From positions 1 to 48,935 of the forward strand of contig JAFGLU010000032.1 in the NCBI GenBank assembly GCA_016927865.1: DNA of 48,935 nucleotides, given 5' to 3'. This document shows, in pieces, positions 2,928 through 27,033 of the stretch (positions are counted from its first letter, which is position 1; the number at the start of each line of letters is the position of its first letter). Origin of the DNA: Anaerolineaceae bacterium (lineage in GTDB: Bacteria > Chloroflexota > Anaerolineae > Anaerolineales > Anaerolineaceae). A program made the position numbers and the translations under genes. Under the pieces are notes generated by a model, which saw nothing but the letters and a program-made list of their open reading frames with translations, had not been told where the DNA came from and did no database searches.

Positions 2928-2951
2928 GATAGTTGGTAAGCCCTACTCAAG

Positions 2952-4094
2952 CTAGATGGGCCGGAGGATGCGATCCTGGCGCAGCTGCTTGAAGAACAAA
3001 ACAGTGTTGGGTGTCATCGATTCTCGGGCTGCTTCCTGCCAGGCAGACACAGACAGAGAATCGGGGGCGCGCTTTTCATAGCCCATGCCCTTCCACAAGG
3101 CTTCGTTGGCCAGGGCGGTTGGGACGAAAACCAGAGAGGCTTCGCACTGCAAGTTGCGCGAAGCCTGTTCCATTTCTTCCATCATGGGGGGCAGGACCTG
3201 GTTGGCGGGGATTTCAGGGATGAGGAGAATATCGACGGTGCGGGAGACCAGGTTTTCTACCTGCCAGCCCAACACGCCGCCCAGGTTTTCGCCGACCTTG
3301 AGCAGAAGGAAGGCTTTCTCGCCAAAAGCGGCCATGATGTCATCATGGGCAAGCTTGGACGCAGCAGGGCGCACGCGGTTGATGAGCGCGGCAATGGCCT
3401 GCGAGTCCCGGGGCTTGCCGCGGATCACGCTGACCTCACCGAGGGAGATTTTTTGGGTGGCGACGGTTTTGGCGGGAGCGCTTTCTTCGGTGGCGATGCC
3501 GATTTTCTGATAAGCCGCGACGACCTGCTTCCAGGCGTCTTCAAAGCTGGTGTCGTTGCGGATGACCACGTTGGCGGCTTTGACTTTTAGATCTTGGGGC
3601 GGCTGAGAGGTGATGCGGGCCTTCGCATCGGCCTCGCTCATCTTGCGGTTGTGCAGCAGGCGGTTGTATTGGACAACAGGGGCGGAAGTGACCACCCACA
3701 CGCTGTCGCAGGATTTGTGCATGTTGGCTTCCAACAGCTTGATAGCCTCGACCACAATCACCTTTTGCGTGGAGTGTTTAATGAGCCAATCGACGCCTTG
3801 AAGTACGAAGGGATGGATGATGGATTCGAGCTGTTTGAGGGCCTCGGGGTTGCTGAAGACCAGGCGGGCCACCTTGCCGCGGTCAATCTCGCCCTCGGGG
3901 GTCACGATCCACTTGCCGAAGCTGTCGATGACCTTTTGGTAACCAGGAGCGCCTTTGGCAATGACCCGGTGAGTGAGCGAATCAGCATCAATGGTGTAGG
4001 CGCCCAAATGTTCCAACATGCGCCGCACAACACTCTTTCCGGTGCCGATGTTTCCTGTTAGTCCGATGACGTATTTTCCTGGCCAGCTGCTCAC
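2952..4094 (-). CDS. coaE: Dephospho-CoA kinase with C-terminal GNAT-like extension
   Basis: 380 residues, nearly twice the usual 200. Residues about 1-200 are a dephospho-CoA kinase, the last step of CoA synthesis: the P loop GLTGNIGTGKS is near the N terminus, with DADSLTHRVI and HPFV motifs following. Residues about 213-380 form a separate domain (from SLGEVSVIRGKPRDSQAIAA) ending in a segment with MGYEKR and VLFFKQLR, which resembles an acyl-CoA-binding GNAT fold; that reading is tentative. The start is chosen as GTG at 4092-4094, because AAGGAG lies five bases before it; the GTG six bases further upstream overlaps that ribosome binding site. Confidence 0.85.
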   Translation of the reverse strand: MSSWPGKYVIGLTGNIGTGKSVVRRMLEHLGAYTIDADSLTHRVIAKGAPGYQKVIDSFGKWIVTPEGEIDRGKVARLVFSNPEALKQLESIIHPFVLQGVDWLIKHSTQKVIVVEAIKLLEANMHKSCDSVWVVTSAPVVQYNRLLHNRKMSEADAKARITSQPPQDLKVKAANVVIRNDTSFEDAWKQVVAAYQKIGIATEESAPAKTVATQKISLGEVSVIRGKPRDSQAIAALINRVRPAASKLAHDDIMAAFGEKAFLLLKVGENLGGVLGWQVENLVSRTVDILLIPEIPANQVLPPMMEEMEQASRNLQCEASLVFVPTALANEALWKGMGYEKRAPDSLSVSAWQEAARESMTPNTVLFFKQLRQDRILRPI

Positions 4095-4225
4095 ACCCAC
4101 TCCTTTTTCCCTGGTTGCCCCTTTACAGGTTCGAGTATCTGCCCAGCCTATGGTTTACAAGATTGGTCACTGCTTGCTACCGGGTGGCACTCGATGGCTC
4201 CACCTACCATTTTATGCAGAATAGG

Positions 4226-4247: not shown

Positions 4248-5456
4248 TTAGTCTGGGAGCTGCTCGAGGTACTTTAAGCCGGTGCCGGTGTTGAGGAGCA
4301 GAACGCGCTCATCAGCCGATACCCATCCGCGCTGTTTCAGGATTTCCAGACCGGCCAGGGTGGCTGCGCCTTCGGGAGCCACGAACAAGCCTTCAACAGA
4401 GGCCAGTTCGAGTTGAGCAGCGGTGATAGCTTCTTCGCTGACGCCGACAGCCGTGCCATTACTTTCTTTGATGGTCTGCAGAATCAATTGATCGGCGAAG
4501 CTTTTGGGCACGCGCAGGCCCGAGGCGTGCGTCTTTGCGCCCACAAAGAAGTCACAGAAGGGCATATTGTTATCGACCGCTCGGACCACCGGTGCGCAGC
4601 CTTCAGCCTGAACAGCCACCATGCGGGGGTAGGATTTGGTTTCGAGCCAGCCCATAGCGGCCATCTCTTGAATGGCCTTCCAGATGCCCACCAGCCCGGT
4701 TCCACCGCCGGTGGGGTATAAAATTACGTCGGGCAGAGTCCAATTCATGGCCTCGGCGATCTCATAGCCCATAACTTTTTTGCCTTCAGCGCGGTAGGGC
4801 TCTTTGAAGGTGGAGACATCGAACCAGCCTTCGTTGCGGGCTTTTTCACCGGCCATACCGGCGGCTTCACTAATCAACCCTTGGATGAGGATGACGGTGG
4901 CGCCAGCGATGCGGCTCTCTTTGATATTGGCCACGGGGGTATCGCGAGGCATGAAGATGTATGACTGCATCCCGCCGCGACTAGCATAGGCAGCCATGGC
5001 GCCGCCGGCATTGCCCGCGGTGGGGATAACAACTTTGTCTACGCCTAATTCGTGTGCCCGGGAGATGGCAGCAGCCAGGCCGCGCGCTTTGAAACTTCCC
5101 GTAGGATTCAGGCTTTCGTCTTTAATCAGCAGGTTGGAAAAGCCTTTTTGAGCCCCAAGGCGCGGGAGATGGAGCAGGGGGGTGTCGCCTTCGCCCAGGG
5201 TGATAACATGTTCTGGGCTTTGTACGGGCAGCACAGCATGCCAGCGCCACATGCCGCCGTGTTGGTGGCTAATATAATCTCGATCTACCTCGGCGCGGGC
5301 TTTTTCGAGGTCATAATAGGCAACCAGGGGGGCCTGGCAGTCAGGACAATACGTTTGGATGCGTTGGGGGTCAAAAACAGTTTGGCAAGAAGAGCATTCC
5401 AGGTGAGTTAAATAGCTGAACTGTGACCCCGCGGCTTTCGTGTTTGGCGCAATCAT
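4248..5456 (-). CDS. thrC: Threonine synthase-like PLP enzyme with zinc ribbon
   Basis: 402 residues. Family reaction: O-phosphohomoserine to threonine and phosphate. A four-cysteine zinc ribbon is at the N terminus (C21, C24, C37, C40). The PLP-lysine motif is NPTGSFKARG (K123), with the phosphate-binding TAGNAGGAMA and the glycine loop PTGGGTGLVG. All key residues are intact. The start is the ATG at 5454-5456, which overlaps the stop of the upstream receiver gene by four bases (ATGA); a longer reading frame exists but runs through that gene. It is the last gene of the seven-gene signalling unit and a paralogue of the receiver-fused enzyme. Whether it serves bulk threonine synthesis or the signalling system is not known. 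Confidence 0.9.
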   Translation of the reverse strand: MIAPNTKAAGSQFSYLTHLECSSCQTVFDPQRIQTYCPDCQAPLVAYYDLEKARAEVDRDYISHQHGGMWRWHAVLPVQSPEHVITLGEGDTPLLHLPRLGAQKGFSNLLIKDESLNPTGSFKARGLAAAISRAHELGVDKVVIPTAGNAGGAMAAYASRGGMQSYIFMPRDTPVANIKESRIAGATVILIQGLISEAAGMAGEKARNEGWFDVSTFKEPYRAEGKKVMGYEIAEAMNWTLPDVILYPTGGGTGLVGIWKAIQEMAAMGWLETKSYPRMVAVQAEGCAPVVRAVDNNMPFCDFFVGAKTHASGLRVPKSFADQLILQTIKESNGTAVGVSEEAITAAQLELASVEGLFVAPEGAATLAGLEILKQRGWVSADERVLLLNTGTGLKYLEQLPD

Positions 5457-5845
5457 GCGTCGGTCTTTCCGCTGGTTTCGAGCAGCGCATCGACTCGGGC
5501 CCACAGTTCGCGAATGTTGATGGGCTTGGACATATACACGTCGCAACCGGCTTCCAGGGCTTTTTCAGCATCTCCTTTTAACGCATTGGCCGTGATGGCA
5601 ATGATCGGTACATATTGCAGATGCTCAAGGTCGCTTGCTCGCAAACGGCGGGCAATTTCGTATCCATCGATATCCGGCAGGTTGATGTCCAGAAGGATTA
5701 GATCTGGTTTGACCTCTGAAGCCAGGTCAATACCTTTCAGCCCGGTTTCGGCGGGAATAAAGTTGTGACCGATGGCTTCAATAGCCCGTTTGACAAGGGT
5801 CATGTTATCGGGATTGTCTTCAATATATAGGATCTTGGCTGCCAT
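5453..5845 (-). CDS. Stand-alone response-regulator receiver
   Basis: 130 residues, a receiver domain with no output domain. Phospho-acceptor D53 in LLDINLPDIDG, acidic pocket E9/D10, T85 and K107 (MSKPIN) are all present, so phosphorylation is expected. Single-domain receivers act as phosphate shuttles or by binding partners. It sits between two threonine-synthase-like genes: its ATG overlaps the stop of the upstream fusion gene by one base (TAATG) and its stop overlaps the downstream ATG by four bases. That tight coupling suggests the three proteins are made in fixed proportion. Confidence 0.95.
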   Translation of the reverse strand: MAAKILYIEDNPDNMTLVKRAIEAIGHNFIPAETGLKGIDLASEVKPDLILLDINLPDIDGYEIARRLRASDLEHLQYVPIIAITANALKGDAEKALEAGCDVYMSKPINIRELWARVDALLETSGKTDA

Positions 5846-7500
5846 TATTTCTTCTCCTCAGTCTTTCCCTTCTGTTCGATGACCTCCACGACTTGATTGA
5901 CAAAGGCGCGAACGGGCAAAGAACCCTTTTGATAAAGCCCTTCGATGTGGCCATTCAGGCGTTTCAAATCTGCTTCCGAGATATCCTTTGCGCTGACGAC
6001 GATCACTGGGATGTTCTGCGTACGGGCGTCCAGCTTGAGTTCTTCCACTACGCTAAAACCGTCCATTTCTGGCATGGTCAAATCGGTGATGATCAAGTCG
6101 GGCAAACGCTGGCGAGCCTGGGTGAGGCCTTCCCACCCATCCTGCGCGTGGAAGACCCGGTAGGACTTGCGAGCTTCCAGGAAGCGCCGTACCAGCAAAG
6201 CATCGTCCCCGTTATCGTCAATGAGCAAAACCGTGGTGGTCTTCTCATCCAGGTTTTCCAGGGCGGAGACAAGACCTTCGCGGGGCGCGTTGCTGGCTTG
6301 TTCAGATATGCTAATGTCCACTCGCCATTGGTCACCCAGGACATGCTTCTCCACAGGAAAGGTGTGACCGGTGCAGTTGATCATCACCAATTCGTCCGGG
6401 CGGATGACGCCTTCCTGGATCATCTTGCGTGTTCCGGCAAAGGCAACCGCGGCGGCCGGCTCAACGGCCATGCCTTCGGTTTTGGCCAGGCCCATCATGG
6501 CCTGGAAAGCCTCGCTGTCGGATACTGCTTCCATTGTACCACCAGCTTGCTGGAGGATGCGCCATAAATACGTGTAGGGTTTTCCGGGGTCGCCAGTGGA
6601 AAGGATGGCGATGCGGGTTTCAGGAACGACCGGCTCGGCGACATCTTTTCCGGCTTTGAAGGCTTTGACCATGGGGGCGCAGCCTTCAGCCTGGATGATG
6701 CCAATGTGAGGCAGGCGGTCAATGAGACCCATGTCGTACATTTCTTGAAAGCCGTGATGCACCCCCAGCGGCCCAAGGCCGCCGCTGACAGCCTGGATGT
6801 ACCAATCGGGTGCGCGCCATCCCAACTGCTCTACGATTTCGTAAGCGATGGTTTTCATGGACTCGCGGGCAGGAATGCTGCCGGCGCCACGATCCAAAGT
6901 CAATCCGCGCCGTTGGGCAAACTCGGCGGCAATTTGCTTGGTCTGGTCGTAGGTGCCGCTGACTTTGATGACCTCGGCGCCGTAGAGCGCGGATTCTCGC
7001 AGTTTTTCTTGCGGCACCAGCGAGGTCATGAAGACCCACAATTTGATCCCGGCGCGGGCACAGGCTGCGGCGTAGGCCACGGCGGCGTTGCCGGTGGAGG
7101 CGATGACGCATTCTTTGATGCCGTTCTCGACCATGGCGGCCACGGAGATGAAGGCCTGGCGATCTTTGAAGGAACTGGTTGGGCCGTAGCGCTCGTCTTT
7201 GACGTATAGTTGTTCATGCTGGTAGACGGCGGAGAGGCGCGTGGTGCGCTCCAGGGGCGTCCAGCCCACGTTGCCAAACTTGAGCTCTTTGGGTTCGGCC
7301 ACCGGCAGCAAGTCGTGGTAGCGCCAGATGTTGAGCGGGCGGCCGGGCAGCCCGCGGAATAGCTCGCGCTTGAAGGCGGCATAGTCGTAAACAGGTTCAA
7401 CCCAGCCGCATTTGCACTGGTCGCACGAGTTCGGCACGGCAGGCCGGTATTCCTGCTCGTGTCCGCATTCTTTGCATTTTACATACAATGGTTTGGCCAT
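5845..7500 (-). CDS. Threonine synthase-like PLP enzyme fused to a receiver domain
   Basis: 551 residues. Residues 1-395 are a threonine-synthase-like PLP enzyme with zinc-ribbon cysteines (C9, C12, C26, C29, with C31 nearby), the PLP-lysine motif SSFKDRQ (K112), STGNAAVAYA and SGGLGPLG. After a short linker (about 396-420), residues 421-545 are a complete receiver domain: D428/D429 pocket, phospho-acceptor D473 in ITDLTMPEMDG, S503 and K525. The reading frame is continuous and both domains keep their catalytic residues, so this is a real fusion rather than a gene-prediction error. It follows the histidine kinase by 12 bases. The inference is that kinase signalling controls the enzyme directly by phosphorylation of D473. 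The true substrate is unproven. Confidence 0.9.
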   Translation of the reverse strand: MAKPLYVKCKECGHEQEYRPAVPNSCDQCKCGWVEPVYDYAAFKRELFRGLPGRPLNIWRYHDLLPVAEPKELKFGNVGWTPLERTTRLSAVYQHEQLYVKDERYGPTSSFKDRQAFISVAAMVENGIKECVIASTGNAAVAYAAACARAGIKLWVFMTSLVPQEKLRESALYGAEVIKVSGTYDQTKQIAAEFAQRRGLTLDRGAGSIPARESMKTIAYEIVEQLGWRAPDWYIQAVSGGLGPLGVHHGFQEMYDMGLIDRLPHIGIIQAEGCAPMVKAFKAGKDVAEPVVPETRIAILSTGDPGKPYTYLWRILQQAGGTMEAVSDSEAFQAMMGLAKTEGMAVEPAAAVAFAGTRKMIQEGVIRPDELVMINCTGHTFPVEKHVLGDQWRVDISISEQASNAPREGLVSALENLDEKTTTVLLIDDNGDDALLVRRFLEARKSYRVFHAQDGWEGLTQARQRLPDLIITDLTMPEMDGFSVVEELKLDARTQNIPVIVVSAKDISEADLKRLNGHIEGLYQKGSLPVRAFVNQVVEVIEQKGKTEEKK

Positions 7501-7512
7501 AAACTCCTCGAG

Positions 7513-10428
7513 TTAGGTCGGTTTGACGGCAACGAATGGCAATTCCATGATGAAAGTTGAGCCTTCGCCCGGAATGCCGGAACTTTCGGCCCACAGTCTT
7601 CCGCCGTGCATTTGCATCAGGCGGCGGCTGATGGGCAAGCCCAGGCCGGTTCCGCCCACTTTACGGGTAGTGGAAGTGTCTACCTGGCTAAAGGCCTCGA
7701 AGATCATTTCCAGTTTGTCCGGCGGGATGCCCATGCCCGTGTCCTTGATGCGGATGCGGAAGTTAGTTTCGCTAATGGCATTTACGTGGATGCTAATACC
7801 GCCTTGCGGCGTGAACTTCACCGCATTGGAGATGATATTGATGATCACCTGGCGCAAACGAGTGCGGTCAGCGGTGATTTCGTTCACTCTCTCGTCGAAG
7901 TGGTCAATGCGGAAGTAGAGGCCCTTTTGCTGGGCCAGCGATGCAGTAATTTCCATCGACTCGGTCAGAAGATCGCGCAGGGCAAATTTCTCCAGGCCCA
8001 GGCTCATCTTGCCTGCTTCAATCTTGGACATATCCAGAACTTCATTGATCAAGCCGAGCAGGTGCTTGCCGTTCTTCTGGATCAGGTTGATGTCGTTAAT
8101 CATCTGTTCGGTCAGGGGGCCGTCCAATTCGAGCAGCAGCACCTCGGCAAAGCCCAGGATCGAGTTGAGCGGGGTGCGCAGCTCGTGGCTCATGTTGGAC
8201 ATGAAGGAGGATTTGAGGTGGTCCAGTTCGCGCAAGCGGTCCACCGTGACGGCCTGTTCCGCATACAATTCCGCGTTTTGCAGCGCGATCGAAATTTGGG
8301 AGGCCAGGGTTTGGAAGGTTCGTGCATCTTCACGACCGAAGCGGTTGGGCGTATCGGACATAGCGCTGAAGACGCCCATCAAGCGCTCGCCCACCAGCAG
8401 GGGGATGTTGATCTCGGCGCGCACCTGGGGCAGAATTGGATTGGGGACAAAACCGGGGTCTAGCTGGGAGTCATTCATGATGACCATTTGGCGAGATCGC
8501 ACGGCCCGGCTGACGGGGGCTTGATTGTCGGCGATACCGGTGAGGATGCCCGAGGAGACTAGCAGGCTTCCAGCGGTGCCTGAACCGGCGGCAACTTCAA
8601 GAGCATTGAGCTCGTAATCGTAGCGGTAGACCTGCACGTGGTACAGGTTGAAACTGGTGCGGGTCAAATCTACCACGGTTTGGAGCAGTTCTTGCGGATC
8701 GAGGATGGAAGAAGCCGCGGTACTCACCTGGGCCACGGTTTGAAGCTCGGCGGCGCGCTTGCGAGTCTGTTCCAGCAACATGCGGTTGTTGACCACCACC
8801 GCGGCCTGGCGGGCCAGGGTGGAATATAAGCGCTGCTCATGATCGGTGAATTGGTGAGGCGCTTCCCAGTGGATGAAGACGATTCCCACCCAGCGCCCGC
8901 TGATGGTGAGGGGCAGCGCAGCCAGAGATTTGGCCCCGGACTTATCGAGAATTTCGCGGGCCTGTTCGTGGAACTGGCGCGAGGTTTCCAGGTCTGCAAT
9001 CAGGATTGGCTCGTTCAGTTCCTCCAGGAAGGCAGCGTACGCGGGATAATCGGCCAGGGCCAGGCGAGTTCCCTCGGGCATGATCTGGGTGCCTTCGCCG
9101 GGATACCACACAGCGGCCAGAGAGAGCGATTCGGGCTGCCCGGTTTCGTCCAGGTTGATGATAAACAGACGGCTGTCGCGCGCGCCGGTGTCTATGGCCG
9201 GTTCAGACACGGAGGTGAGGGCTTCGTCCAGGGATTGGGCAGTGCTCAAACGGGCGCTAATGCGATAGAGCAATTCGGTTTCGGAAAGAGCTTGTTCCCT
9301 TTGGGCTGCCAGGCGCAGTCCTTCCAGATGCGTGGACAAGCGGTCGCCGATGACGTTGACCAGGTTGCTGTCTTCGGGGGCCAGATCTTGATCGCTTTGA
9401 ACACCAAACCAGCCAATGGGGTGGTCGCGGATGGTTAGCGGTTGGGAGACCACGTCGGGGATTTGCTGGGCTTCGGTTTCGGGCAGCGGTTTGACCAGGC
9501 TGCGATCATATTGGTAACTGAGGTGAGGCAGGCCGGTGCTGGCGAAGTAGGCTTCCCAGCCGCTGCGGGTCAGGTCTTGAATGGCGTGCTCGGATTGCTC
9601 GCGGTAATGGCGTGACTCTTCCAAGAAGCGCAGGTTTTGCACCTGTTGGGACAGGCGTTGCGCCACAGTTTCAACCAGAGAGGTGTCATCGGGGCTTAAT
9701 TCATGCCCGGGCGCGGCTTCGACAGCCAGTTGGCCTTTGAACAGCTCACCGCTGCGCAGTGATACGCGCAACCCGTTGATATCATCGGGCGATGTTTCGG
9801 CCGGGTGCACGTCTTCTTGCTGGTCAAACTCATAGTTGAAATCGGTGCGGGCCGTGGGGGCAGAGCCGTCAGTTCGACCAGACTCGGCAGCTTCGGCGGA
9901 CGTTTGGCGGCTCAAACGATTGACGGCTTGCTCTGCTTGCTCGCGCGAGCGGTCGGCTTCATCGATCAGTTGCAGCGTTTCGAGCTGTTGAGCAAGCCGC
10001 GCCAGCACATCCGTCACCAGTCTTGCTTCGTTCTGGCTCCATTTTTGTCCGGCTTCACGCTCCAGTTTCAAGCTGCCCACCGGGCTGCCAGAAATTTTGA
10101 CCGGAACGGTGAGTTGAGCCTTGCCCGGGTCGTCGCTTTGCCCATGACCATTGACCGGTTGCACCTGATCGGACTGGGTCTGGTAGGTGAAGCCCATTTG
10201 TTCAGTCCGGTGGATGCCGTCGAGAAACTCATTCCAGCCGGACTGGGCTTTGACGCGGAATGGGGCGGCCCGGCGGATTGATCGAGGGCTTGGGCTGCGC
10301 GGTTTGAACTCATACGACTCGGGCAGGGCTGTTTGAAGCGCTTCGGCCGGTTCCTGAGATTGCAGATCAGGCGGCGCGAAGGCCTCAAACATTTCTTTTA
10401 GTCGTTTTTCGTATTTTTTACCGGTCAT
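7513..10428 (-). CDS. Multi-GAF sensor histidine kinase
   Basis: 971 residues, no membrane segment seen, so probably cytoplasmic. Residues about 63-158, 193-272 and 289-376 are three degenerate GAF-like modules of a recurring type (SGW..., PVG or PIG, then a helix like QQLETLQL). Two fuller GAF domains follow (about 382-550 and 560-722). Then HisKA with H748 in SNMSHELRTPL, and HATPase_c with the N box NIISNAVKF (about 864-872), DTGMGIP and GGTGLGL. It is the only kinase in the seven-gene unit. The neighbouring sensors lack kinase domains and may signal through it. The partners are expected to be D53 and D473 of the two downstream receivers. The start ATG at 10426-10428 has GAGGAG nine bases upstream. 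Confidence 0.93.
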   Translation of the reverse strand: MTGKKYEKRLKEMFEAFAPPDLQSQEPAEALQTALPESYEFKPRSPSPRSIRRAAPFRVKAQSGWNEFLDGIHRTEQMGFTYQTQSDQVQPVNGHGQSDDPGKAQLTVPVKISGSPVGSLKLEREAGQKWSQNEARLVTDVLARLAQQLETLQLIDEADRSREQAEQAVNRLSRQTSAEAAESGRTDGSAPTARTDFNYEFDQQEDVHPAETSPDDINGLRVSLRSGELFKGQLAVEAAPGHELSPDDTSLVETVAQRLSQQVQNLRFLEESRHYREQSEHAIQDLTRSGWEAYFASTGLPHLSYQYDRSLVKPLPETEAQQIPDVVSQPLTIRDHPIGWFGVQSDQDLAPEDSNLVNVIGDRLSTHLEGLRLAAQREQALSETELLYRISARLSTAQSLDEALTSVSEPAIDTGARDSRLFIINLDETGQPESLSLAAVWYPGEGTQIMPEGTRLALADYPAYAAFLEELNEPILIADLETSRQFHEQAREILDKSGAKSLAALPLTISGRWVGIVFIHWEAPHQFTDHEQRLYSTLARQAAVVVNNRMLLEQTRKRAAELQTVAQVSTAASSILDPQELLQTVVDLTRTSFNLYHVQVYRYDYELNALEVAAGSGTAGSLLVSSGILTGIADNQAPVSRAVRSRQMVIMNDSQLDPGFVPNPILPQVRAEINIPLLVGERLMGVFSAMSDTPNRFGREDARTFQTLASQISIALQNAELYAEQAVTVDRLRELDHLKSSFMSNMSHELRTPLNSILGFAEVLLLELDGPLTEQMINDINLIQKNGKHLLGLINEVLDMSKIEAGKMSLGLEKFALRDLLTESMEITASLAQQKGLYFRIDHFDERVNEITADRTRLRQVIINIISNAVKFTPQGGISIHVNAISETNFRIRIKDTGMGIPPDKLEMIFEAFSQVDTSTTRKVGGTGLGLPISRRLMQMHGGRLWAESSGIPGEGSTFIMELPFVAVKPT

Positions 10429-10468
10429 GCCGTCGGACTCCTCTGAAGGCCGTGTCTGAGAGCGGACT

Positions 10469-13400
10469 CTAGTTATCCTGGCCGTCTTGCTGCTGCAAGC
10501 CCAACTGGATCACGGTGCGTTGAGCGCCAAGGGCGCGGCCCAACTCTCGGACGGCCACCTGCAGGGCGGCTTCCACCGAGGTGGTGGATTGGATGCGTTC
10601 ACTGATGGCATTGATCAAAGATTCGCGTTCGGCTTGCTGCTGGGCGCGGATGTAGGAGCGGCTGTTTTGCAGCGAGACCGCGACCTGAGAAGCCAGGGTG
10701 GTGAAAACGTTGACGTTTTCTTCGGTGAACCGCCCAACTTGATCATCCTGCACGTCCAAAACGCCCAGGAGCTGGTCGCCTGCCACCAGTGGCACCGAAA
10801 CCTCTGAGGCGGTGCTGGGCAGCAGGGGGTGGGGGAGGAAGTAGGGGTCGATATAGGTGTCGTTGACGATTTCACCCTTGCGGTCGCGAGCGGTGCGCGC
10901 CACCAGCGATTTCTCCGAGTCCATTGGAATGGAGCGGCCTTCAGCGACCATGGTTCGCCCAACTTCGCCCGCGCCGGCGCGTAGGACCAGATTCTGGCCG
11001 TCCTCGTCCAGAAGGTAAATGTGGGCATGGTATAGATGGAAGCGTTCTTTCGTCAAATCTACCACCTCTTGGAGCATCTTTTCGGGATCAAGGAGGGTGG
11101 AGATGGTGGTGGACACTTCGGCAACCGTGGCCAGTTCGGACGCGCGTTGGGCGGTCAATTCCTGCTGGCGGACCTGTTCGGTCACGTCCTGGTTGGTGCC
11201 AACTACATTGATGGCGCCATTGGGTGCGATGTCAATGCGATAGCGGGAAAGGACCGTCATTCCTTCACCGGTGCCGCGAATGACCCGGAAGGTCGTTTCG
11301 CGTTGGCCGCTCGCTTCGGAATTCCCCGCGCTTTCTTGCAGGGCAGCCACCAGCGATTCTCGATCGGCGGGGTGGATGAACTTGAGCAGCATACTGGAAA
11401 CTGGCATTTCGTAGCTGCCTTCTTCTTCCAGCGAGGTGCCAAACAGGTTGAACATGTCGTCGTTGAAGGTGAAGACGCCCTTATTGATATCGTAGCTCCA
11501 ATAGGCCATCTTAGCTACGTTCAAGGCTTCAGAAAGACGGGCGCGTTCTTCCTGCAAAATTTCGGCCTGGCGGATCTGTTCGGTCACATCCTGGTTGGAG
11601 CCATTGAGTCGAATGACCTTGCCTTGATCGTCCATTTGAATGCGGGTACGGACCGTCACGTAGATGATCTCGCCCGTAGCGCGGATCATGCGCGAAGTGC
11701 CTTCGTAGAGGTAGTTGGGGTCGGTGGTTACCAGGGCCTCTCCGATCTTATCTCCCACAATGTGCGCATCTTCTGGGTGAACGAATCGCTCCGCATATAT
11801 CTGGGCCGGCATTTCATAGGAACCTTCTTGTTCGATGCTGGTGCCCGCCAGACGGTAGAATTCGTCGTTGAAGATGAATGTGCCGGTTGCAACGTCAAAA
11901 GACCAGTTAGCCATCTTGGCGGCTTGCTGGGCTTCGGCCAGGCGCTGGCGCTCAGTGGTGAGCAGTTGTTGCTGCGTAAATTGTTCGGTGACGTCCTGAT
12001 TGGAGCCGTTGACACGGACAATTTTGCCTTCTGCATTTGTTTCAGCGCGGGTACGAACCGTTACGTAGATGATCTCGCCATCGGCGCGGATCAGGCGTGA
12101 GGTGCCCTCATATTCGAAATTGGGGTCGTCGCTTGCCAGCGCTGACAAAATGTGCGCATCCTCGGGATGGACAAAGCGTTGAGCGTAGACATAGGCGGGC
12201 ATTTCGTAGGTACCTTCTTGCTCGATGGTGGTGCCGATCAGGCGATAGAAATCATCGTTGAAGGTGAAGGTAGTAGTGGCCACGTCCAGGCTCCAACTGG
12301 CCAGCTTGGCTGCTTGTTGGGCTTCGGACAGGCGGGTTTCGGTGACGCGGCGCTCTTCCAACTCGCGTTGGGCGGTGTTGAACAGGCGCATGTTTTCGAG
12401 GTGGGCGCTCAACTGATCGCTCACTGCTTTTAGTAGTGCATTGTCGTCGCTGGAAAGCCAGTCCTTTCCGGTAATCTGCAACATGCCGATAGGTGTGTCT
12501 TGCACCTTCAGGTCATAGGTCAGGCTTTCTTCTTCGGGCAGGGCGTCGGCGTCAGATAATTCAACTGACTCTTGATCGTAGGTGAAGCCGGTTTTGCCAC
12601 GCTCGATGCTCTTGAGGTATTCTTCCCAGTTTGCGCTGGTCATTCGCTGCAAAGTGGCTTCTGTTTGTTTTTGGTAGCGTTCGGCTTGTGAAAGCAAGCG
12701 CAGATTTTCGAGCTGCTGAGCCACCTGGCCGGCCACTGTTTCGACCAGGACACGGTCCTGGTTGGCCCAGGGTTGCTCGGCGGCGAATTGGAACGTGCCG
12801 ATTGTTTCACCGCCAACTTTGATGGGGGTGAGCAGCGTGCGGTCATCTGCCGCAGGGGTGGGGATTTCTTCGGCGGGTTCAACCGTGCCGGCTTCCGCCA
12901 TATAAGCGATGCGCTCGCGCTGCTCAATGGCATCCAGATAATCTTCCCAACCGGCTCGGATGGAGCCTTGAGAGCGGGCTTCCAATTCTTTGAGGGCGTT
13001 TTCTGTTTTGGCCAGGAGGGACGCATTATAAAGCGTGGAGGCCAACTGCCCGGCCAACACCTCGTAGGCGGCGAGGTTCTCTTCAGAAAGACTGCCGGCT
13101 ACCTTACTTTGCAGGTTTAACACACCCAGAACTTGCTCGCCGGAAATGAGCGGGACTGCCATTTCGGAGTGGGTTTCGGGGAGCAGGCGATTGGGCCGGA
13201 ACATGCGGTTGTTGGCGGTGTCTGAAACGATGACGGCGTGCCGCTCGATAGCGGCGGTGCCGTTGATGGAGGTCAGGTCAAGGGGCAAGCGGTGGGCGCG
13301 CTCGAGTAGCTCGCGGCCAGCCTCGCCGGTGCCGGCTCGCAAGACCAGGTTTTTTGATTCGGCGTCCACCAGGTAGACCTGCACATAGTAAAGTTCGAAG

Positions 13401-14185
13401 CGCTCTCGGATCAGCTCAACCGCGTCGGTTACGAGGGTGGAGGTGTCTTGCGCTCTGGACATGCGCCGACCCACCTCGGCTGCCAGGGCAATGTCCCGGG
13501 TGCGTTCTGAAATACGCTGTTCCAGGCCGGTTCGCAATTCGTTTAGTTGTTGGTTGACAGCCTGGTTTTCATTAAGGCGTGCTCGCTCGATGCTGTTCCG
13601 GGCAATGGTAATGATGATCGCAACGATGCCCATGGCTATGAAAATAGGCGCCATGCTGGTGGCGTCGGTTGCCAATTCTGGAGAAATCCTCGAAACCACC
13701 CCAAGGGCGATCAGGTTGAGGACGATTAAGGCAATTTGAGCTGGGACGGTGAGAAGGCTGACGGCCAGAAGGAAGGACAACGGCGCGGTGGCAAATATGG
13801 CGGTGATGGGAGCCAGGTCGCCCACCAGGAACATGCCGAATCCTAAAGCTGAATTTGCCAGTACGTATAAGAAGGCGCTGACTTCGTAGTGACGGGTGCG
13901 GGCGAGGAAATAGCTGCATAGGGCGATCACGACCATGCCGCCCACCAGGAGTATGGTGGGATTGGACAACCTTGATGTAATTGCAAGGTAGATGGTGCCG
14001 AAGATAGCCACCACGGTCAAGGCGAGTGCCAAAGAAGCGGTCAGGGCCGCCTGGCGGCGGCGGCCTACTTCGGTTACCTTCTGGTTGGGCATGGTAAGGC
14101 TGTTCCAGAATTGGGCGAGGCCCTTGCGTAAGCTTTTAGGCTCGGTGGGCTCTGGGAAGGGGTGTCGAAGAGATTCAGAAGTCAT
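10469..14185 (-). CDS. Membrane GAF/PAS sensor protein without a kinase domain
   Basis: 1238 residues. About five or six membrane helices lie in residues 48-196. Next is a helical linker (LEQRISERTRD), a GAF domain (about 230-392), two degenerate W-type modules (RAGWEDYL at about 410 and SANWEEYL at about 518, each ending LENLRL or LENMRL), three tandem PAS domains (about 619-1010) that are close copies of each other, a final GAF (about 1020-1190) and a 45-residue C-terminal helical segment shared with the two other sensors of the unit. There is no HisKA, HATPase, GGDEF or phosphatase domain. It is therefore a pure sensor or scaffold, which may pair with the kinase encoded 40 bases downstream. 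Confidence 0.88.
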   Translation of the reverse strand: MTSESLRHPFPEPTEPKSLRKGLAQFWNSLTMPNQKVTEVGRRRQAALTASLALALTVVAIFGTIYLAITSRLSNPTILLVGGMVVIALCSYFLARTRHYEVSAFLYVLANSALGFGMFLVGDLAPITAIFATAPLSFLLAVSLLTVPAQIALIVLNLIALGVVSRISPELATDATSMAPIFIAMGIVAIIITIARNSIERARLNENQAVNQQLNELRTGLEQRISERTRDIALAAEVGRRMSRAQDTSTLVTDAVELIRERFELYYVQVYLVDAESKNLVLRAGTGEAGRELLERAHRLPLDLTSINGTAAIERHAVIVSDTANNRMFRPNRLLPETHSEMAVPLISGEQVLGVLNLQSKVAGSLSEENLAAYEVLAGQLASTLYNASLLAKTENALKELEARSQGSIRAGWEDYLDAIEQRERIAYMAEAGTVEPAEEIPTPAADDRTLLTPIKVGGETIGTFQFAAEQPWANQDRVLVETVAGQVAQQLENLRLLSQAERYQKQTEATLQRMTSANWEEYLKSIERGKTGFTYDQESVELSDADALPEEESLTYDLKVQDTPIGMLQITGKDWLSSDDNALLKAVSDQLSAHLENMRLFNTAQRELEERRVTETRLSEAQQAAKLASWSLDVATTTFTFNDDFYRLIGTTIEQEGTYEMPAYVYAQRFVHPEDAHILSALASDDPNFEYEGTSRLIRADGEIIYVTVRTRAETNAEGKIVRVNGSNQDVTEQFTQQQLLTTERQRLAEAQQAAKMANWSFDVATGTFIFNDEFYRLAGTSIEQEGSYEMPAQIYAERFVHPEDAHIVGDKIGEALVTTDPNYLYEGTSRMIRATGEIIYVTVRTRIQMDDQGKVIRLNGSNQDVTEQIRQAEILQEERARLSEALNVAKMAYWSYDINKGVFTFNDDMFNLFGTSLEEEGSYEMPVSSMLLKFIHPADRESLVAALQESAGNSEASGQRETTFRVIRGTGEGMTVLSRYRIDIAPNGAINVVGTNQDVTEQVRQQELTAQRASELATVAEVSTTISTLLDPEKMLQEVVDLTKERFHLYHAHIYLLDEDGQNLVLRAGAGEVGRTMVAEGRSIPMDSEKSLVARTARDRKGEIVNDTYIDPYFLPHPLLPSTASEVSVPLVAGDQLLGVLDVQDDQVGRFTEENVNVFTTLASQVAVSLQNSRSYIRAQQQAERESLINAISERIQSTTSVEAALQVAVRELGRALGAQRTVIQLGLQQQDGQDN

Positions 14186-14208
14186 ATTTTTTCCTTTCCC
14201 TTCCGGTA

Positions 14209-16029
14209 CTATGAGTTACCGTTTTTGCGCGAAGCAGGAGAGCGAAGCTCGACTGCTGCGCGGTCAGATTTCAAGGCCTGATTCAAGCCGTTCAGGGCTA
14301 CTTGCAGGACTTCGTCGACTGTGCCGGCGCGCTGAACTTGGGCGGCGATATTCGCTGCAATACTTTCGCGCTCGGCGCGTTGTTGCGCTTCGGTGTAAGC
14401 CTGGGCATTTTGCAGCGCGATGGCGACCTGGTTGGCGATGGTCTGCAACAGGTCAACATCTTGCTGCGTAAGGCCGTCAGGGATGTTGTGCTGCACGTCC
14501 AACACGCCCATGACATCATTGCCCAACAGAATGGGCACAGCGGCCTCGGCGCGCGTGTCGGGCAGCAGGGGGTTGGGCAGCCAGCCTTCGGCAGTGGAAA
14601 CGTCAGGTACCAGCACCGGCTGCTTGGATTCGGCGGTTCGGCCGACCAGACCCTGGCCGTGGGCCAACTTGTGGCCGCGCTCCAACATGATTTGGCCTGC
14701 TTCGCCGGTTCCGCCGGCCATGACCAGAGTTTGGTTGGTCTTGTCCACCAGGTAAATGTGAGCGTGATAGTAGCCGAAGGCGTTTTTCAGTTGCTCAACC
14801 ACCTCGCGCACCAGTTGCTGCGGGTCGAGGATGGTGGAAAGGTTGCGGCTGACCTCGGAGCTGATTTGCAACATGCGGGTGCGCTCTTGCACCTGGCTTT
14901 CCAGCGAGCCGAAGATGCCTTTTAATTGGGCGGACATGAGGTTGAATGCGTTCGCCAGGGAGCCGATTTCATCCCCGCGGTTGATATTGACGCGCTGATT
15001 CAGGTCGCCGCCGGCCATTTTTTCGGCTGCCAGGGTAAGATCTTCAACCGGTTTGAGGGTGCGGCGGATGAGGAGCCAGGCTACCAACAGGGTCAAGGCT
15101 AGCGCGATGCTAATACCGGTCAAGTTGGCGCGGCGAGCAACGTTTTGGGCGGATAAAACTTCTTGAGCGGTCTGTTGGATGATGACACCGTGTCCACTAT
15201 CGAGCTGGTCAACGTAGGAATACCATTCCTCACCGTTTTCATCGGTAAAGGTGAACAGCCCGCGGCCTCCCTCGCGCATATATTTTACCGGAGGGTATTG
15301 GCTGAAGTCGCGCAGTTCGGTGGTTAAAGAGGTGTCGGGGTGGGCGATGAGAAAGCCGTTAGGATCGATGATGTAGGAGTAGCCGGTTTGACCGACTCGA
15401 CCAACGTTGACGCCGCTGGCGACGTCGGTAATTTCGGTGGCGAAGGACACGATCTGGACGATTTGGCCCTCAACGTTATATACCGGGGCGGCGTAAATGA
15501 CAGCCGGGCGCTGGGTGGTGCGACCTATGACACTTTCAATAGCGAGCGGCGATCCTGTTACTGCACTTTGGAAGTATGCCCGGTCGCCGTAATCGGTAAG
15601 CTCTTTTCGGTCGTTACGGGCGATATCCAATCCGTTCAAATCCATCGTATGGATCAGGTATAGCTGGGGGAAGGCCTCACCGACCCCAACCATGAAAGGC
15701 TCTTGCAAGGGGGCCACCAGGCTGCGGATTTGTGGAGAGTCGGCCAGGTAACGAATCATCTGCTCGTTAAAGTTGAGCCAGATTCGCAGGCTGGTGACCA
15801 CGGCCTGGTTGGTTTGCTGAAGCTGTTGATCCGATTGAACCTGCATGGCGAGCTGCACGCGCCGGCCAACAGCGGCCGAGGAGATCAGGAAGATGGGCAA
15901 TGTAATCAGCGCAATGATGAGAATCAGGCGCGTATTGAGGCGCATATGGTGGAACAAGGTCCCCAGCCCGCGGCGGCGGGGTTTTTCCTGTCGAGCGGTT
16001 TTTTGAGCGGGATTCTGTAAATCGGTCAT
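14209..16029 (-). CDS. dCache-HAMP-GAF membrane sensor, no output domain
   Basis: 606 residues. A first membrane helix (about 34-56), a roughly 245-residue extracellular double-Cache-type domain (with YGDRAYFQSA and GYSYIIDPNGFLIAHP), a second membrane helix (about 305-325), HAMP (about 325-380, KPVEDLTLAAEKMAGGDL), a GAF domain (about 395-560) and the 45-residue C-terminal segment starting RAERESIAANIA. The architecture is that of a chemoreceptor or sensor kinase, but with neither an MCP signalling domain nor a kinase. dCache domains usually bind small molecules such as amino acids, which would fit the threonine-synthase neighbours; that is inference. Ten bases separate it from the next sensor gene upstream. 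The ATG at 16027-16029 has GGAG seven bases before it. Confidence 0.88.
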   Translation of the reverse strand: MTDLQNPAQKTARQEKPRRRGLGTLFHHMRLNTRLILIIALITLPIFLISSAAVGRRVQLAMQVQSDQQLQQTNQAVVTSLRIWLNFNEQMIRYLADSPQIRSLVAPLQEPFMVGVGEAFPQLYLIHTMDLNGLDIARNDRKELTDYGDRAYFQSAVTGSPLAIESVIGRTTQRPAVIYAAPVYNVEGQIVQIVSFATEITDVASGVNVGRVGQTGYSYIIDPNGFLIAHPDTSLTTELRDFSQYPPVKYMREGGRGLFTFTDENGEEWYSYVDQLDSGHGVIIQQTAQEVLSAQNVARRANLTGISIALALTLLVAWLLIRRTLKPVEDLTLAAEKMAGGDLNQRVNINRGDEIGSLANAFNLMSAQLKGIFGSLESQVQERTRMLQISSEVSRNLSTILDPQQLVREVVEQLKNAFGYYHAHIYLVDKTNQTLVMAGGTGEAGQIMLERGHKLAHGQGLVGRTAESKQPVLVPDVSTAEGWLPNPLLPDTRAEAAVPILLGNDVMGVLDVQHNIPDGLTQQDVDLLQTIANQVAIALQNAQAYTEAQQRAERESIAANIAAQVQRAGTVDEVLQVALNGLNQALKSDRAAVELRSPASRKNGNS

Positions 16030-16038
16030 ACCAACTCC

Positions 16039-18435
16039 TTATTCTTGCTCTTCATGGGAGCCAAGTTTGACGGAGACTTTGGGAACATTGAGTGCGCGGC
16101 CCAACTCTCGCACGGCCACCTTGAGGGCTTCCTCTGCGGTGTTGGTGCGCTGGATGCGCTGGCTGATGGAGGTGAGCAGCGCTTCACGATCGGCGCGCTC
16201 TTGAGCGCGAACAAAAGTGCGCGCGTTTTGCAAACCGATGGCAACCTGCGAACCAATGGCCTGCAGCATGTCGGCATCCGTCTGGTTTAAGCCGTCTGCG
16301 CGGTTCTGCTGCACATCCAGCACGCCGATGACATCTCCACCGAAGGTGAGGGGGACGGCGAGCTCGGAGCGGGTTTCGGGCAGGAGGGGGTTGGCCACCC
16401 AACCTTCGGCCTGAGTCACGTCGGTTACCAGCACCGGGGCGGCGGTAGAAGCGGCACGGCCCACCAACCCCTGGCCAGATGCCAGGCGGTGCCCGCGGGC
16501 CAGCATGGTTTGACCGGCTTCACCGGTGCCGCCTGCCATGACCATTTCGCGGGTGACCTCGTCCAGTAAATAAATATGGACGTGGTAATAATTGAATGCG
16601 GATTGGAGCTGCTCAACCACTTCTTTCACCAGTTGGCTGGGGTCCAAAATGGTGGACAGTCGCCGGCTTACATCGGCGGAGGTGGCCAGAGCTTTGGTAC
16701 GCTCTTCAACGCGCTGCTCCAGGCCTTCTACCATATCATTTAGCTGAGCGGTCATGCTGTTGAAGGTTCCCGCCAGGGAGCCAATTTCATCTTTTGATTC
16801 CACTTTGGCTCGCCGGCGCAGGTCGCCCGCTGCCACCTGATCGGCTACCGTGGCCAGGCGAGTGATGGGGCCGACGAAAGCCGAGGCGGCTATGAATGCG
16901 AGGGCGATGACGAAGATGCCCAGACCGATGGCTGCCAGGATGATGAAGCGGGCAATGGTAGAAGCCGCCTGTTGGGTTTCGGTCAGGCTTTGATGAATGA
17001 TGATTCTCCAGCCCAGTTGGTTGAGCAGGTTCTGATATTCCGAGTAGGGAGAAGAAACCGGTTTGATGCTCACTAGAGCCGGACGTCCCCGGTAATAAGC
17101 CATTCCGTATTCGCCTGTTACAGCGTTCAAAGCGGTGGAATCTTCACTGCTCATGGAATAGATACCCGCTTCGCTGCTATACATTAAGATATTCCCAAAG
17201 ACCAAATCAGCCTGGCCGGTTTGACCTAAGAGGACAGCTTCCACCAGGTTTGCATAGCGGCTGATGTCGACTGTTGCGCGCAGCACGCCGATGACTTCGT
17301 CGCTGGTGTGAGAGTAGATGGGAACAGCGATGATGCTGCCCAATTTTAAGATACTGGGGTCCCAATCCGGTTCTCCAACGAAAATGTTGCCGGTGCCGTC
17401 TTTGTAGGCCGCCTGCCACCACACTTCATCCGCCTGGTAATAGTCTGAAGTTCGGGCGGTGGAAGCTACCACGGCGCCGAATTTGTTGGTGACAAACACC
17501 TCCACGAAAGAGGGGAATGCGTTTTGAAAATCTTGTAATTCGAGCACCAAACGGTGCTTGGTCACTTCGACGACCAGCGGGTCGTCGTTGGGGGCGGTGG
17601 CCCACTGAATGTCGAGGGCCAACATAGTTTGTATATCGGAAGTGCCGCGGACATTACCTTCCATTACAGTGGTTTGGACCGGGTCGTTGAGGGAGAGGGT
17701 CCTCAGGGTGTCGAGGTCATCTTCCAGGGTGAAAGCCACCTGAGAGCCCGTGGACGCAGCTAACGAAGCCAGGCCCTGGCCCACACGGTCGTTGACTTCG
17801 TTGGTGGTGAGGGTAACAGAAGTGTAACCAACGACGACAATGGTGATCAGCGCGATGCTCAGGAAGGCAATGAGTAGTTTAGTGCGGATCGAGTAATCGC
17901 GGAACTGGCGGATGACGAATACGATGAACAACAACGCCATGACGGCGACAATGATTGAAACAATTCGCAACGATGAATCCAGCACCCTTCGCTCGGCGGG
18001 CATGAACTGATCTACCAAGAGAGAAAGGATCCCGGATATAAAGCCGAGGGCAATGAATACGGTGGCTTGCCGGCCCTGAAGGGTCCGGCTGACCATTAGG
18101 ATTGAGGTGAGCACTGTAAAGAGAAATACGTGGAAACCAAGCCCGGAAAACAGGAAGCAGAAACTTGAGAGAAGAACCAGCCAGCCGATACCGCTAATCC
18201 ATAAGCCTGTTTCTGGGCGGTTTCTGATGATGCCGATGCCGATAATATTGGAGAGGAGCGCAACGACAGAAATTGCGCCAATCACATACAGGTGCGTGGC
18301 AGGGTTCAGGGTGATCTGGTAGATCAGGAAGCCTAATAAGAACAGTTCTAAGGGGAGGAAAAACAACGCCACCTGGAGCGCACGACGCGCCAGAGGGGTT
18401 AATTTTTTCTTTCGAAGTTCTGAGGGTTTATTCAT
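16039..18435 (-). CDS. Polytopic dCache-HAMP-GAF membrane sensor, no output domain
   Basis: 798 residues. About six membrane helices at residues 18-172 (a MASE-like block), another at about 185-205, an extracellular double-Cache-type domain (about 205-490, with YYQADEVWWQAAYKDGTGN), a further helix (about 497-520), HAMP (GPITRLATVADQVAAGDL), GAF (about 590-745) and the shared C-terminal segment (RADREALLTSISQRIQR). There is no kinase. The HAMP-GAF-tail half is clearly paralogous to the next gene; the N-terminal membrane block is extra. The start is ATG at 18433-18435 with AGGAG eight bases upstream; a GTG at 18454-18456 is upstream of that ribosome binding site and is rejected. First gene of the seven-gene unit. 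Confidence 0.88.
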   Translation of the reverse strand: MNKPSELRKKKLTPLARRALQVALFFLPLELFLLGFLIYQITLNPATHLYVIGAISVVALLSNIIGIGIIRNRPETGLWISGIGWLVLLSSFCFLFSGLGFHVFLFTVLTSILMVSRTLQGRQATVFIALGFISGILSLLVDQFMPAERRVLDSSLRIVSIIVAVMALLFIVFVIRQFRDYSIRTKLLIAFLSIALITIVVVGYTSVTLTTNEVNDRVGQGLASLAASTGSQVAFTLEDDLDTLRTLSLNDPVQTTVMEGNVRGTSDIQTMLALDIQWATAPNDDPLVVEVTKHRLVLELQDFQNAFPSFVEVFVTNKFGAVVASTARTSDYYQADEVWWQAAYKDGTGNIFVGEPDWDPSILKLGSIIAVPIYSHTSDEVIGVLRATVDISRYANLVEAVLLGQTGQADLVFGNILMYSSEAGIYSMSSEDSTALNAVTGEYGMAYYRGRPALVSIKPVSSPYSEYQNLLNQLGWRIIIHQSLTETQQAASTIARFIILAAIGLGIFVIALAFIAASAFVGPITRLATVADQVAAGDLRRRAKVESKDEIGSLAGTFNSMTAQLNDMVEGLEQRVEERTKALATSADVSRRLSTILDPSQLVKEVVEQLQSAFNYYHVHIYLLDEVTREMVMAGGTGEAGQTMLARGHRLASGQGLVGRAASTAAPVLVTDVTQAEGWVANPLLPETRSELAVPLTFGGDVIGVLDVQQNRADGLNQTDADMLQAIGSQVAIGLQNARTFVRAQERADREALLTSISQRIQRTNTAEEALKVAVRELGRALNVPKVSVKLGSHEEQE

Positions 18436-18552
18436 ATTCGAATCTCCTGTTTTCACGCATGCCCGCCGTCACTATAAATCGTTGCAACCCTGATGCCTGC
18501 ATACGCCATGCCGGTTGTTTGTAAAGTTTACCTCTGGCGAGCCGCCAAAGCG

Positions 18553-26050: not shown

Positions 26051-26103
26051 AATATAGTGCCCTTCATAGATATTGGGAGCGATTTTTGCTGGGAGGCAGT
26101 CAC

Positions 26104-27003: not shown

Positions 27004-27033
27004 GACGCTTGAGATCAACCTCTTAATGGTCCT

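What the first reader, a model, noticed from the sequence alone, without database searches (positions are those of the whole stretch)
4248..18435. Seven-gene two-component unit with threonine-synthase-like enzymes as output
One tightly packed minus-strand unit encodes three kinase-less sensors, one histidine kinase, a PLP enzyme fused to a receiver, a free receiver and a second PLP enzyme. The only candidate outputs are the two threonine-synthase-like enzymes. All catalytic lysines, the kinase H748 and both receiver aspartates are intact. I know of no described system in which phosphorylation of a fused receiver controls a threonine synthase. The proposal that amino-acid or energy signals gate threonine-type chemistry is inference.
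Basis: partly seen in the sequence, partly recalled or inferred. Interest (0 to 1): 0.93.

Follow-up and report, generated by a model that had tools for sequence, protein, structure and literature searches.

The report
Receiver-fused threonine-synthase-like enzyme in signalling operon
A bacterial signalling gene cluster carries an amino-acid-type vitamin-B6 enzyme joined to the switch domain that a sensor kinase normally phosphorylates, and the pairing is kept across many related bacteria, which suggests that a sensor may switch metabolism directly rather than through genes.

Summary
In detail: seven packed minus-strand genes (4248-18456) encode three kinase-less sensors, a histidine kinase (HK), a PLP-enzyme-receiver fusion, a free receiver (REC) and a second PLP enzyme. 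The core, HK - [PALP-REC] - REC, is no local oddity: the fusion was found in 147 of 396 class genomes and 42 of 400 phylum genomes, 7 outside the class. In 97 distinct fusion ORFs gathered, the PLP lysine (96/96 readable), receiver aspartate (97/97) and receiver lysine (97/97) are invariant. An HK lies directly upstream in 75 of 90 testable loci and a REC downstream in 78 of 95, against 2 and 1 of 22 unfused controls. The 55 fusions put in a tree form one clade. The second enzyme, a PRK08197 threonine synthase, is optional: 6 of 17 window-type loci. 'Threonine synthase' is not secured for the fused enzyme: it misses the curated cut-offs, one aligned residue differs invariantly, and the genome has a separate thrC-thrB pair. 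Best reading: a two-component system whose direct output is a phosphorylation-gated PLP enzyme of the threonine-synthase family, substrate unknown. Gating is inferred, not shown.

The parts
16039..18456 (-). kinase-less transmembrane sensor (dCache-HAMP-GAF), P0007; alternative start 18435
   Evidence: Pfam: HAMP and GAF over, dCache_1 under the gathering score; no HisKA/HATPase_c
14209..16029 (-). kinase-less transmembrane sensor (dCache-HAMP-GAF), P0006
   Evidence: Pfam
10469..14185 (-). kinase-less GAF and PAS sensor, hydrophobic N-terminus (by eye), P0005
   Evidence: Pfam; sequence
7513..10428 (-). histidine kinase with GAF domains, HisKA (H748) and HATPase_c, P0003
   Evidence: Pfam; position
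5845..7500 (-). PALP-REC fusion, P0001: four conserved cysteines (C9, C12, C26, C29), PLP lysine K112, low-confidence linker about 380-420, receiver with D473 and K525
5453..5845 (-). free single-domain receiver, D53, P0004
   Evidence: Pfam; position
4248..5456 (-). standalone threonine synthase (NF006050/PRK08197), K123, P0002; optional member of the unit
   Evidence: NCBIfam 551 bits against cut-off 303

Best explanation
The locus is a two-component signalling operon of Chloroflexota whose direct output is an enzyme. Kinase-less sensors feed a GAF-type histidine kinase; the kinase phosphorylates the receiver (D473) fused behind a PLP-dependent enzyme of the threonine-synthase family, and the free receiver (D53) acts as a shared, competing or relay acceptor. 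Phosphorylation changes the activity (or oligomer state) of the PLP domain, so a signal gates an amino-acid reaction without a transcription step. The reaction is a beta/gamma replacement or elimination of the threonine-synthase type; whether it is O-phosphohomoserine to threonine is open, and a different substrate is more likely than not. Shown: gene order, intact catalytic and phosphoacceptor residues, one clade of fusions, long conservation. Inferred: sensor-kinase coupling, phosphotransfer to D473, its effect on catalysis, the substrate and the signal.
For: Fusion in 147 of 396 class genomes (91 of 233 good-quality; at most 2 candidates scored per genome) and 42 of 400 phylum genomes, 7 outside the class. 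The 55 fusions in the careful tree need one change of state; window-type clade 100/100. In 97 distinct fusion ORFs K112 is K in 96/96 readable, D473 97/97, K525 97/97, T136-G137-N138 96/96, G378-H379-T380 97/97. HK within 400 nt upstream on the same strand in 75 of 90 loci with at least 700 nt held, REC within 400 nt downstream in 78 of 95 with at least 500 nt; 22 unfused threonine-synthase-type loci, either side counted, give 2 and 1. In the 17 window-type loci with upstream sequence HK is adjacent in 17 and REC in 17 (16 by script; L152 by eye, where its REC lies in an overlong frame). Nearest solved relatives are threonine synthases by sequence and by fold. PRK08197 synthases sit beside the unit in the window, L125, L143, L149, L151, L152 and L128, and an EamA transporter follows the fusion in 14 of 69 loci, which points to real small-molecule chemistry.
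Against: No biochemistry. Residue conservation fits a PLP- or amino-acid-binding sensor domain as well as an enzyme. The enzyme precedes the receiver, the reverse of most response regulators (recalled). PALP/REC packing is undetermined (linker pLDDT under 50, pTM 0.67). 15 of 90 loci lack an adjacent HK, among them L016 and five near-alike loci (L018, L020, L022, L039, L042). A serine that I recall as part of the substrate-phosphate site of threonine synthase aligns with glycine in 97 of 97, so the chemistry may differ. Many of the 97 are close relatives, I chose which loci to fetch, and 20 of the 22 controls were chosen from synthase copies that do not lie beside a fusion, which lowers their HK count.
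Confidence: 0.52

Rival explanations
1. The PALP domain is not the output but a metabolite sensor or allosteric input: it binds PLP and an amino acid (as the aminotransferase-like domain of MocR/GabR regulators does, recalled) and tunes phosphorylation of its receiver, so the fusion is a phosphate sink or relay node that reads amino-acid status.
For: The enzyme domain sits N-terminal, where inputs usually sit, with one or two C-terminal receivers as in hybrid kinases; many fusions are PALP-REC-REC. The second receiver keeps Asp in 34 of 46 by a motif search (1 Asn, 11 unmatched). Some loci have another output downstream, e.g. a REC-adenylate/guanylate cyclase in L011 and L126.
Against: In the window operon no other output gene follows. 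Catalytic residue set invariant in the 97 ORFs. Recurrent neighbouring enzymes and EamA transporters.
Confidence: 0.25
2. The fused and the neighbouring enzymes are simply extra threonine synthases whose expression is tied to the sensors; the receiver serves for assembly or localisation and phosphorylation does not change catalysis.
For: Best profile for both is threonine synthase; PRK08197 enzyme beside the unit in 7 genomes, the window's included.
Against: Receiver D473 and K525 in 97 of 97, hard to explain if phosphorylation is idle. Fused form below the threonine-synthase cut-offs. A separate thrC-thrB pair exists in this genome.
Confidence: 0.15
3. Substrate variant of the best explanation, not exclusive of it: the PALP-REC fusion acts on a different phospho- or hydroxy-amino acid (cysteate-, homocysteine- or dehydratase-type chemistry), still gated by phosphorylation.
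For: Below threonine-synthase cut-offs; higher cysteate-synthase score than the standalone enzyme (130 against 76 bits, cut-off 325); invariant G205 aligned with a recalled phosphate-site serine. A ThrC family member was shown to act also as a threonine deaminase (PMC12172450, abstract and passages seen).
Against: Closest solved relatives and best profiles are still threonine synthases.
Confidence: 0.6
4. Chance clustering or assembly artefact.
For: None beyond the genome being a draft (147 contigs, 84.5% complete).
Against: Same gene order in several other genomes, one fusion clade, other families of the phylum outside the class.
Confidence: 0.01

Closest known systems
Response regulators with enzymatic output domains (CheB, PleD/GGDEF, EAL, HD-GYP, PP2C, REC-cyclases; recalled)
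   Same: Receiver with canonical Asp/Lys fused to a catalytic domain, histidine kinase next door
   Different: The known outputs that I recall make or break signals or modify proteins; here the domain belongs to an amino-acid biosynthetic PLP family and lies N-terminal of the receiver
Threonine synthase ThrC (TIGR00260; NF006050/PRK08197; PDB 1uim, 2zsj, 2d1f)
   Same: PALP domain, PLP lysine, STGN and glycine-loop motifs, nearest solved relatives
   Different: Fused form misses family cut-offs, carries one or two receivers, differs invariantly at a recalled phosphate-site residue, and coexists with a thrC-thrB pair in this genome
Cysteate synthase (TIGR03844; PDB 9k3c)
   Same: PALP enzyme of the same wider family (derived from threonine synthase, recalled); 130 bits to the fused protein
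   Different: Far below the family cut-off of 325
MocR/GabR regulators (recalled)
   Same: PLP enzyme-like domain joined to a regulatory domain
   Different: Those use a fold type I aminotransferase domain and a DNA-binding domain, no receiver

Membership tests
Response regulator with enzymatic output | Receiver domain with phosphoacceptor Asp and conserved Lys | tested here: met
   Pfam Response_reg 60.4 bits; D473 97/97, K525 97/97
Response regulator with enzymatic output | Histidine kinase encoded alongside | tested here: met
   75 of 90 loci; control 2 of 22. That it is the cognate kinase is inferred
Response regulator with enzymatic output | Phosphorylation changes activity of the attached domain | not testable with these tools
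   needs purified proteins
Threonine synthase (fused enzyme P0001) | Score above a curated threonine-synthase cut-off | tested here: not met
   NF006050 244.3 of 303; TIGR00260 160 of 167.1; the other threonine-synthase models listed are further below their cut-offs
Threonine synthase (fused enzyme P0001) | PLP lysine and PLP-binding motifs | tested here: met
   K112 96/96, N138 96/96, G240/G241/G243 97/97
Threonine synthase (fused enzyme P0001) | Substrate-phosphate site residues (Asn154, Ser155, Arg160 of the T. thermophilus enzyme, recalled) | tested here: inconclusive
   aligned residues R204 (R/K in 69 of 97), G205 (97/97), R212 (K 49, R 34, other 14); the function of these sites is recalled
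Threonine synthase (standalone enzyme P0002) | Score above curated cut-off | tested here: met
   NF006050 551 of 303
Cysteate synthase | Score above curated cut-off | tested here: not met
   TIGR03844 130 of 324.9
dCache_1AA amino-acid sensor (sensors P0006, P0007) | Aromatic, Arg, aromatic pair, aromatic, Asp motif | tested here: inconclusive
   fixed-spacing check without a structural alignment: P0006 has the Arg and aromatic pair but not the first or third aromatic nor Asp at the expected place; P0007 has Glu for the Arg and no third aromatic (motif from passages of PMC10104139, and recall)

The most novel reading that the evidence does not exclude
A conserved family of two-component systems in Chloroflexota in which the phosphorelay ends on a metabolic, threonine-synthase-family PLP enzyme rather than on DNA, a second messenger or the flagellum: sensors switch an amino-acid reaction directly, without new gene expression, with the chemistry itself probably not ordinary threonine synthesis.
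Probability: 0.5. Interest if true: 0.87.

Novelty: new variant of a known kind. Interest (0 to 1): 0.74.

Why it matters
Response regulators are usually read as gene switches, chemotaxis parts or second-messenger enzymes. A widely kept receiver-PLP-enzyme fusion would show that histidine kinases can gate intermediary amino-acid metabolism directly, and it comes with a ready test system: kinase, receiver and enzyme in adjacent genes, one catalytic lysine and one phosphoacceptor aspartate to mutate.

Tried and rejected
Chance or artefact: rejected by recurrence. A seven-gene unit fixed as such: rejected, the standalone synthase is present in 6 of 17 window-type loci, and 128 of 396 class genomes carry it with only 7 copies placed beside a fusion from the printed rows. 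In trees of 7 linked and 16 unlinked copies (16 of the 20 unlinked loci fetched) linkage changes at least 5 times on starred branches, and one clade of the linked copies is rejected (p-AU 2e-72); gain and loss cannot be told apart. Fusion replacing the genome's ThrC: rejected for this genome. HK-PALP single polypeptides: the two long frames that I looked at, in L120/L161 and L128, are open frames overlapping a separate HK frame. Conserved neighbours of the standalone synthase elsewhere: nothing general in 20 loci, but L181 and L183 have an HK 13-14 nt away and L186 a receiver gene just upstream. Amino-acid-sensing motif in the dCache domains: not found by a crude check. Literature for a threonine-synthase- or PLP-enzyme-receiver fusion: of searches (20 of 2,972 papers listed; 20 of 113; 15 of 43; 7 of 7; 10 of 13) I saw the listings, and none of the listed titles or abstract openings describes one; in PMC4558063 the words PALP and pyridoxal do not occur in the main text, and the two passages of PMC7090099 on threonine synthase concern transcript levels. 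The library lacks most subscription papers. Searches were for enzymes and motifs. My label of L127 as the hybrid-kinase type was wrong: it groups with the PALP-REC-REC clade.
Full report
Observation. The minus strand of 4248-18456 holds seven ORFs with spacings of 9, 23, 40 and 12 nt followed by overlaps of 1 and 4 nt (coordinates, sequence). Pfam gives dCache-HAMP-GAF twice (one dCache hit under the gathering score), a GAF and PAS protein, a GAF-HisKA-HATPase_c kinase, PALP + Response_reg, Response_reg and PALP.

Which enzyme is what. The standalone enzyme P0002 is a threonine synthase by NCBIfam (NF006050, 551 bits, cut-off 303). The fused enzyme P0001 has the same best profile but misses the cut-offs (244 of 303; TIGR00260 160 of 167.1), with cysteate synthase at 130 of 324.9. 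Solved relatives by sequence and by fold (3aey, E 2e-24; the first 13 matches are bacterial threonine synthases) are threonine synthases first. The genome's TIGR00260 thrC (288 bits) sits at C73 directly before thrB, and two homoserine dehydrogenase hits exist, so an ordinary threonine pathway need not rely on the window enzymes.

Conservation of the fusion. A scan of bacterial and archaeal genome contigs found 207 relatives and kept the best 80. Of these, 32 (L011-L042, titled Chloroflexi, Anaerolineae, Anaerolineales, Ardenticatenia or Phototrophicales) encode the PALP part with receiver; the other 48 match mainly by the receiver. Profile searches with alignment A1 at E<=1e-100 found the fusion in 147 of 396 class genomes (83 of 222 genera) and 42 of 400 phylum genomes, 7 of them outside the class. 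Only the best two candidates per genome were scored, and six class genomes (G104, G132, G251, G261, G312, G355) have a much weaker best match that I did not inspect. The genome of the window has two: the window copy and C21, of the hybrid-kinase type.

Architectures. Three types emerged: window type, HK - [PALP-REC] - REC, 17 loci with upstream sequence (L023, cut at its upstream end, looks like an eighteenth); HK - [PALP-REC-REC] - REC; and hybrid HK-REC-REC - [PALP-REC] followed by REC-HK and/or an EamA transporter. In 97 distinct fusion ORFs an HK ends within 400 nt upstream on the same strand in 75 of the 90 loci with at least 700 nt held, and a receiver gene follows within 400 nt in 78 of the 95 with at least 500 nt. 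Fifteen lack an adjacent HK: L016, L018, L020, L022, L039, L042, L110, L117, L119, L121, L122, L127, L154, L212, L215; in L117, L119, L121 and L122 another receiver gene stands in that place. Most of the 17 without an adjacent receiver are of the hybrid-kinase type, and one (L152) is an artefact of an overlong frame. The 97 were deduplicated only for exact identity of an inner stretch, several are close relatives, and the fetched regions were my choice, so they are not independent draws. A like test on 22 unfused threonine-synthase-type loci, counting either side, gives 2 HK and 1 REC neighbours; 20 of these were chosen from synthase copies not lying beside a fusion, which biases that control downwards.

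Residues. K112 is Lys in 96 of 96 readable ORFs, T136-G137-N138 96 of 96, G240/G241/G243 97 of 97, G378-H379-T380 97 of 97, D429, D473 and K525 97 of 97, position 503 Ser (73) or Thr (24). Both active sites therefore look selected. The residue aligned to Ser155 of T. thermophilus threonine synthase is Gly in 97 of 97 and that aligned to Asn154 is Arg or Lys in 69 of 97; the numbering and that these residues bind substrate phosphate are recalled, not retrieved.

History. In a careful tree of 93 proteins (4 long-branch rows of the 97 left out) the 55 fusions need a single change, the window type is one clade (100/100) and the 23 standalone PRK08197 enzymes form another (100/100). The standalone synthase is beside the unit in the window, L125, L143, L149, L151, L152 and L128. 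Of 14 window-type genomes searched whole (G000, G061, G111, G148, G164, G179, G280, G298, G314, G327, G340, G345, G372, G382), 7 carry it and 6 of those 7 have it in the operon, G280 being the exception (matched by contig position). It is also present without the window-type unit in many genomes. The seven linked copies are not one clade. Another threonine-synthase-like gene lies about 3.8 kb downstream of the fusion in L135, L188 and L205, with MoaA on the other strand between in L135, and about 4.8 kb downstream in L213.

Structure. AlphaFold2 on alignment A2 gave mean pLDDT 78, pTM 0.67 and a low-confidence linker 380-420: two folded domains on an apparently flexible tether, relative placement unknown.

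Mechanism. Most likely the kinase phosphorylates D473 and the free receiver, and phosphorylation gates the PLP enzyme. This fits the invariance of both active sites, the fixed HK and REC neighbours, and the company of further small-molecule genes (PRK08197 synthase; EamA transporter in 14 of 69 loci, GNAT protein in 12 of 69). The chief rival is that the PLP domain is an amino-acid-reading input. Sequence cannot separate the two; an activity assay with and without phosphorylation can. The signals are unknown: a crude check did not find the published amino-acid motif in the dCache domains.

Novelty. Receivers on enzymes are known; a receiver on a PLP enzyme of amino-acid metabolism, with the enzyme in front, was not seen in the listings of five literature searches of an open-licence library, of which only 69 was listed in full. 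I therefore call it a new variant of a known kind, with a real chance of being a new principle if the gating is shown.

Noticed in passing
window 772-4100: YbbR-domain protein, DAC-domain (diadenylate-cyclase-type) protein and dephospho-CoA kinase lie in a row just downstream on the same strand, a likely c-di-AMP gene pair.
   Followed up: no
window 26086-34014: A REC-GGDEF protein followed by a 2326-residue histidine kinase with seven GAF_2 stretches: a second two-component unit in the window.
   Followed up: no
L011:12294-13325 and L126:7307-8353: In place of the standalone synthase, a receiver fused to an adenylate/guanylate cyclase follows the unit.
   Followed up: partly
L165:6807-7757 and 13 other loci: An EamA-family transporter gene follows the fusion in the type with a hybrid kinase (14 of 69 loci).
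   Followed up: partly
L165:14130-14912 and six other loci (L011, L123, L124, L138, L139, L142): A ParA-like ATPase gene lies in the unit, in the hybrid-kinase type next to the kinase gene on its sensor side.
   Followed up: no
L021:13014-13910 and eleven other loci: A GNAT-domain protein of about 300 residues is a recurrent downstream neighbour.
   Followed up: no
L181, L183 and L186: Standalone PRK08197 synthases without the fusion beside them still have an HK 13-14 nt away (with an asparaginase II gene further on in L183) or a receiver gene just upstream.
   Followed up: partly
window P0005, P0006, P0007 C-termini and P0003 N-terminus: Sensors end in what looks like the first half of a GAF domain and the kinase begins with what looks like a second half; by eye only.
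   Followed up: no
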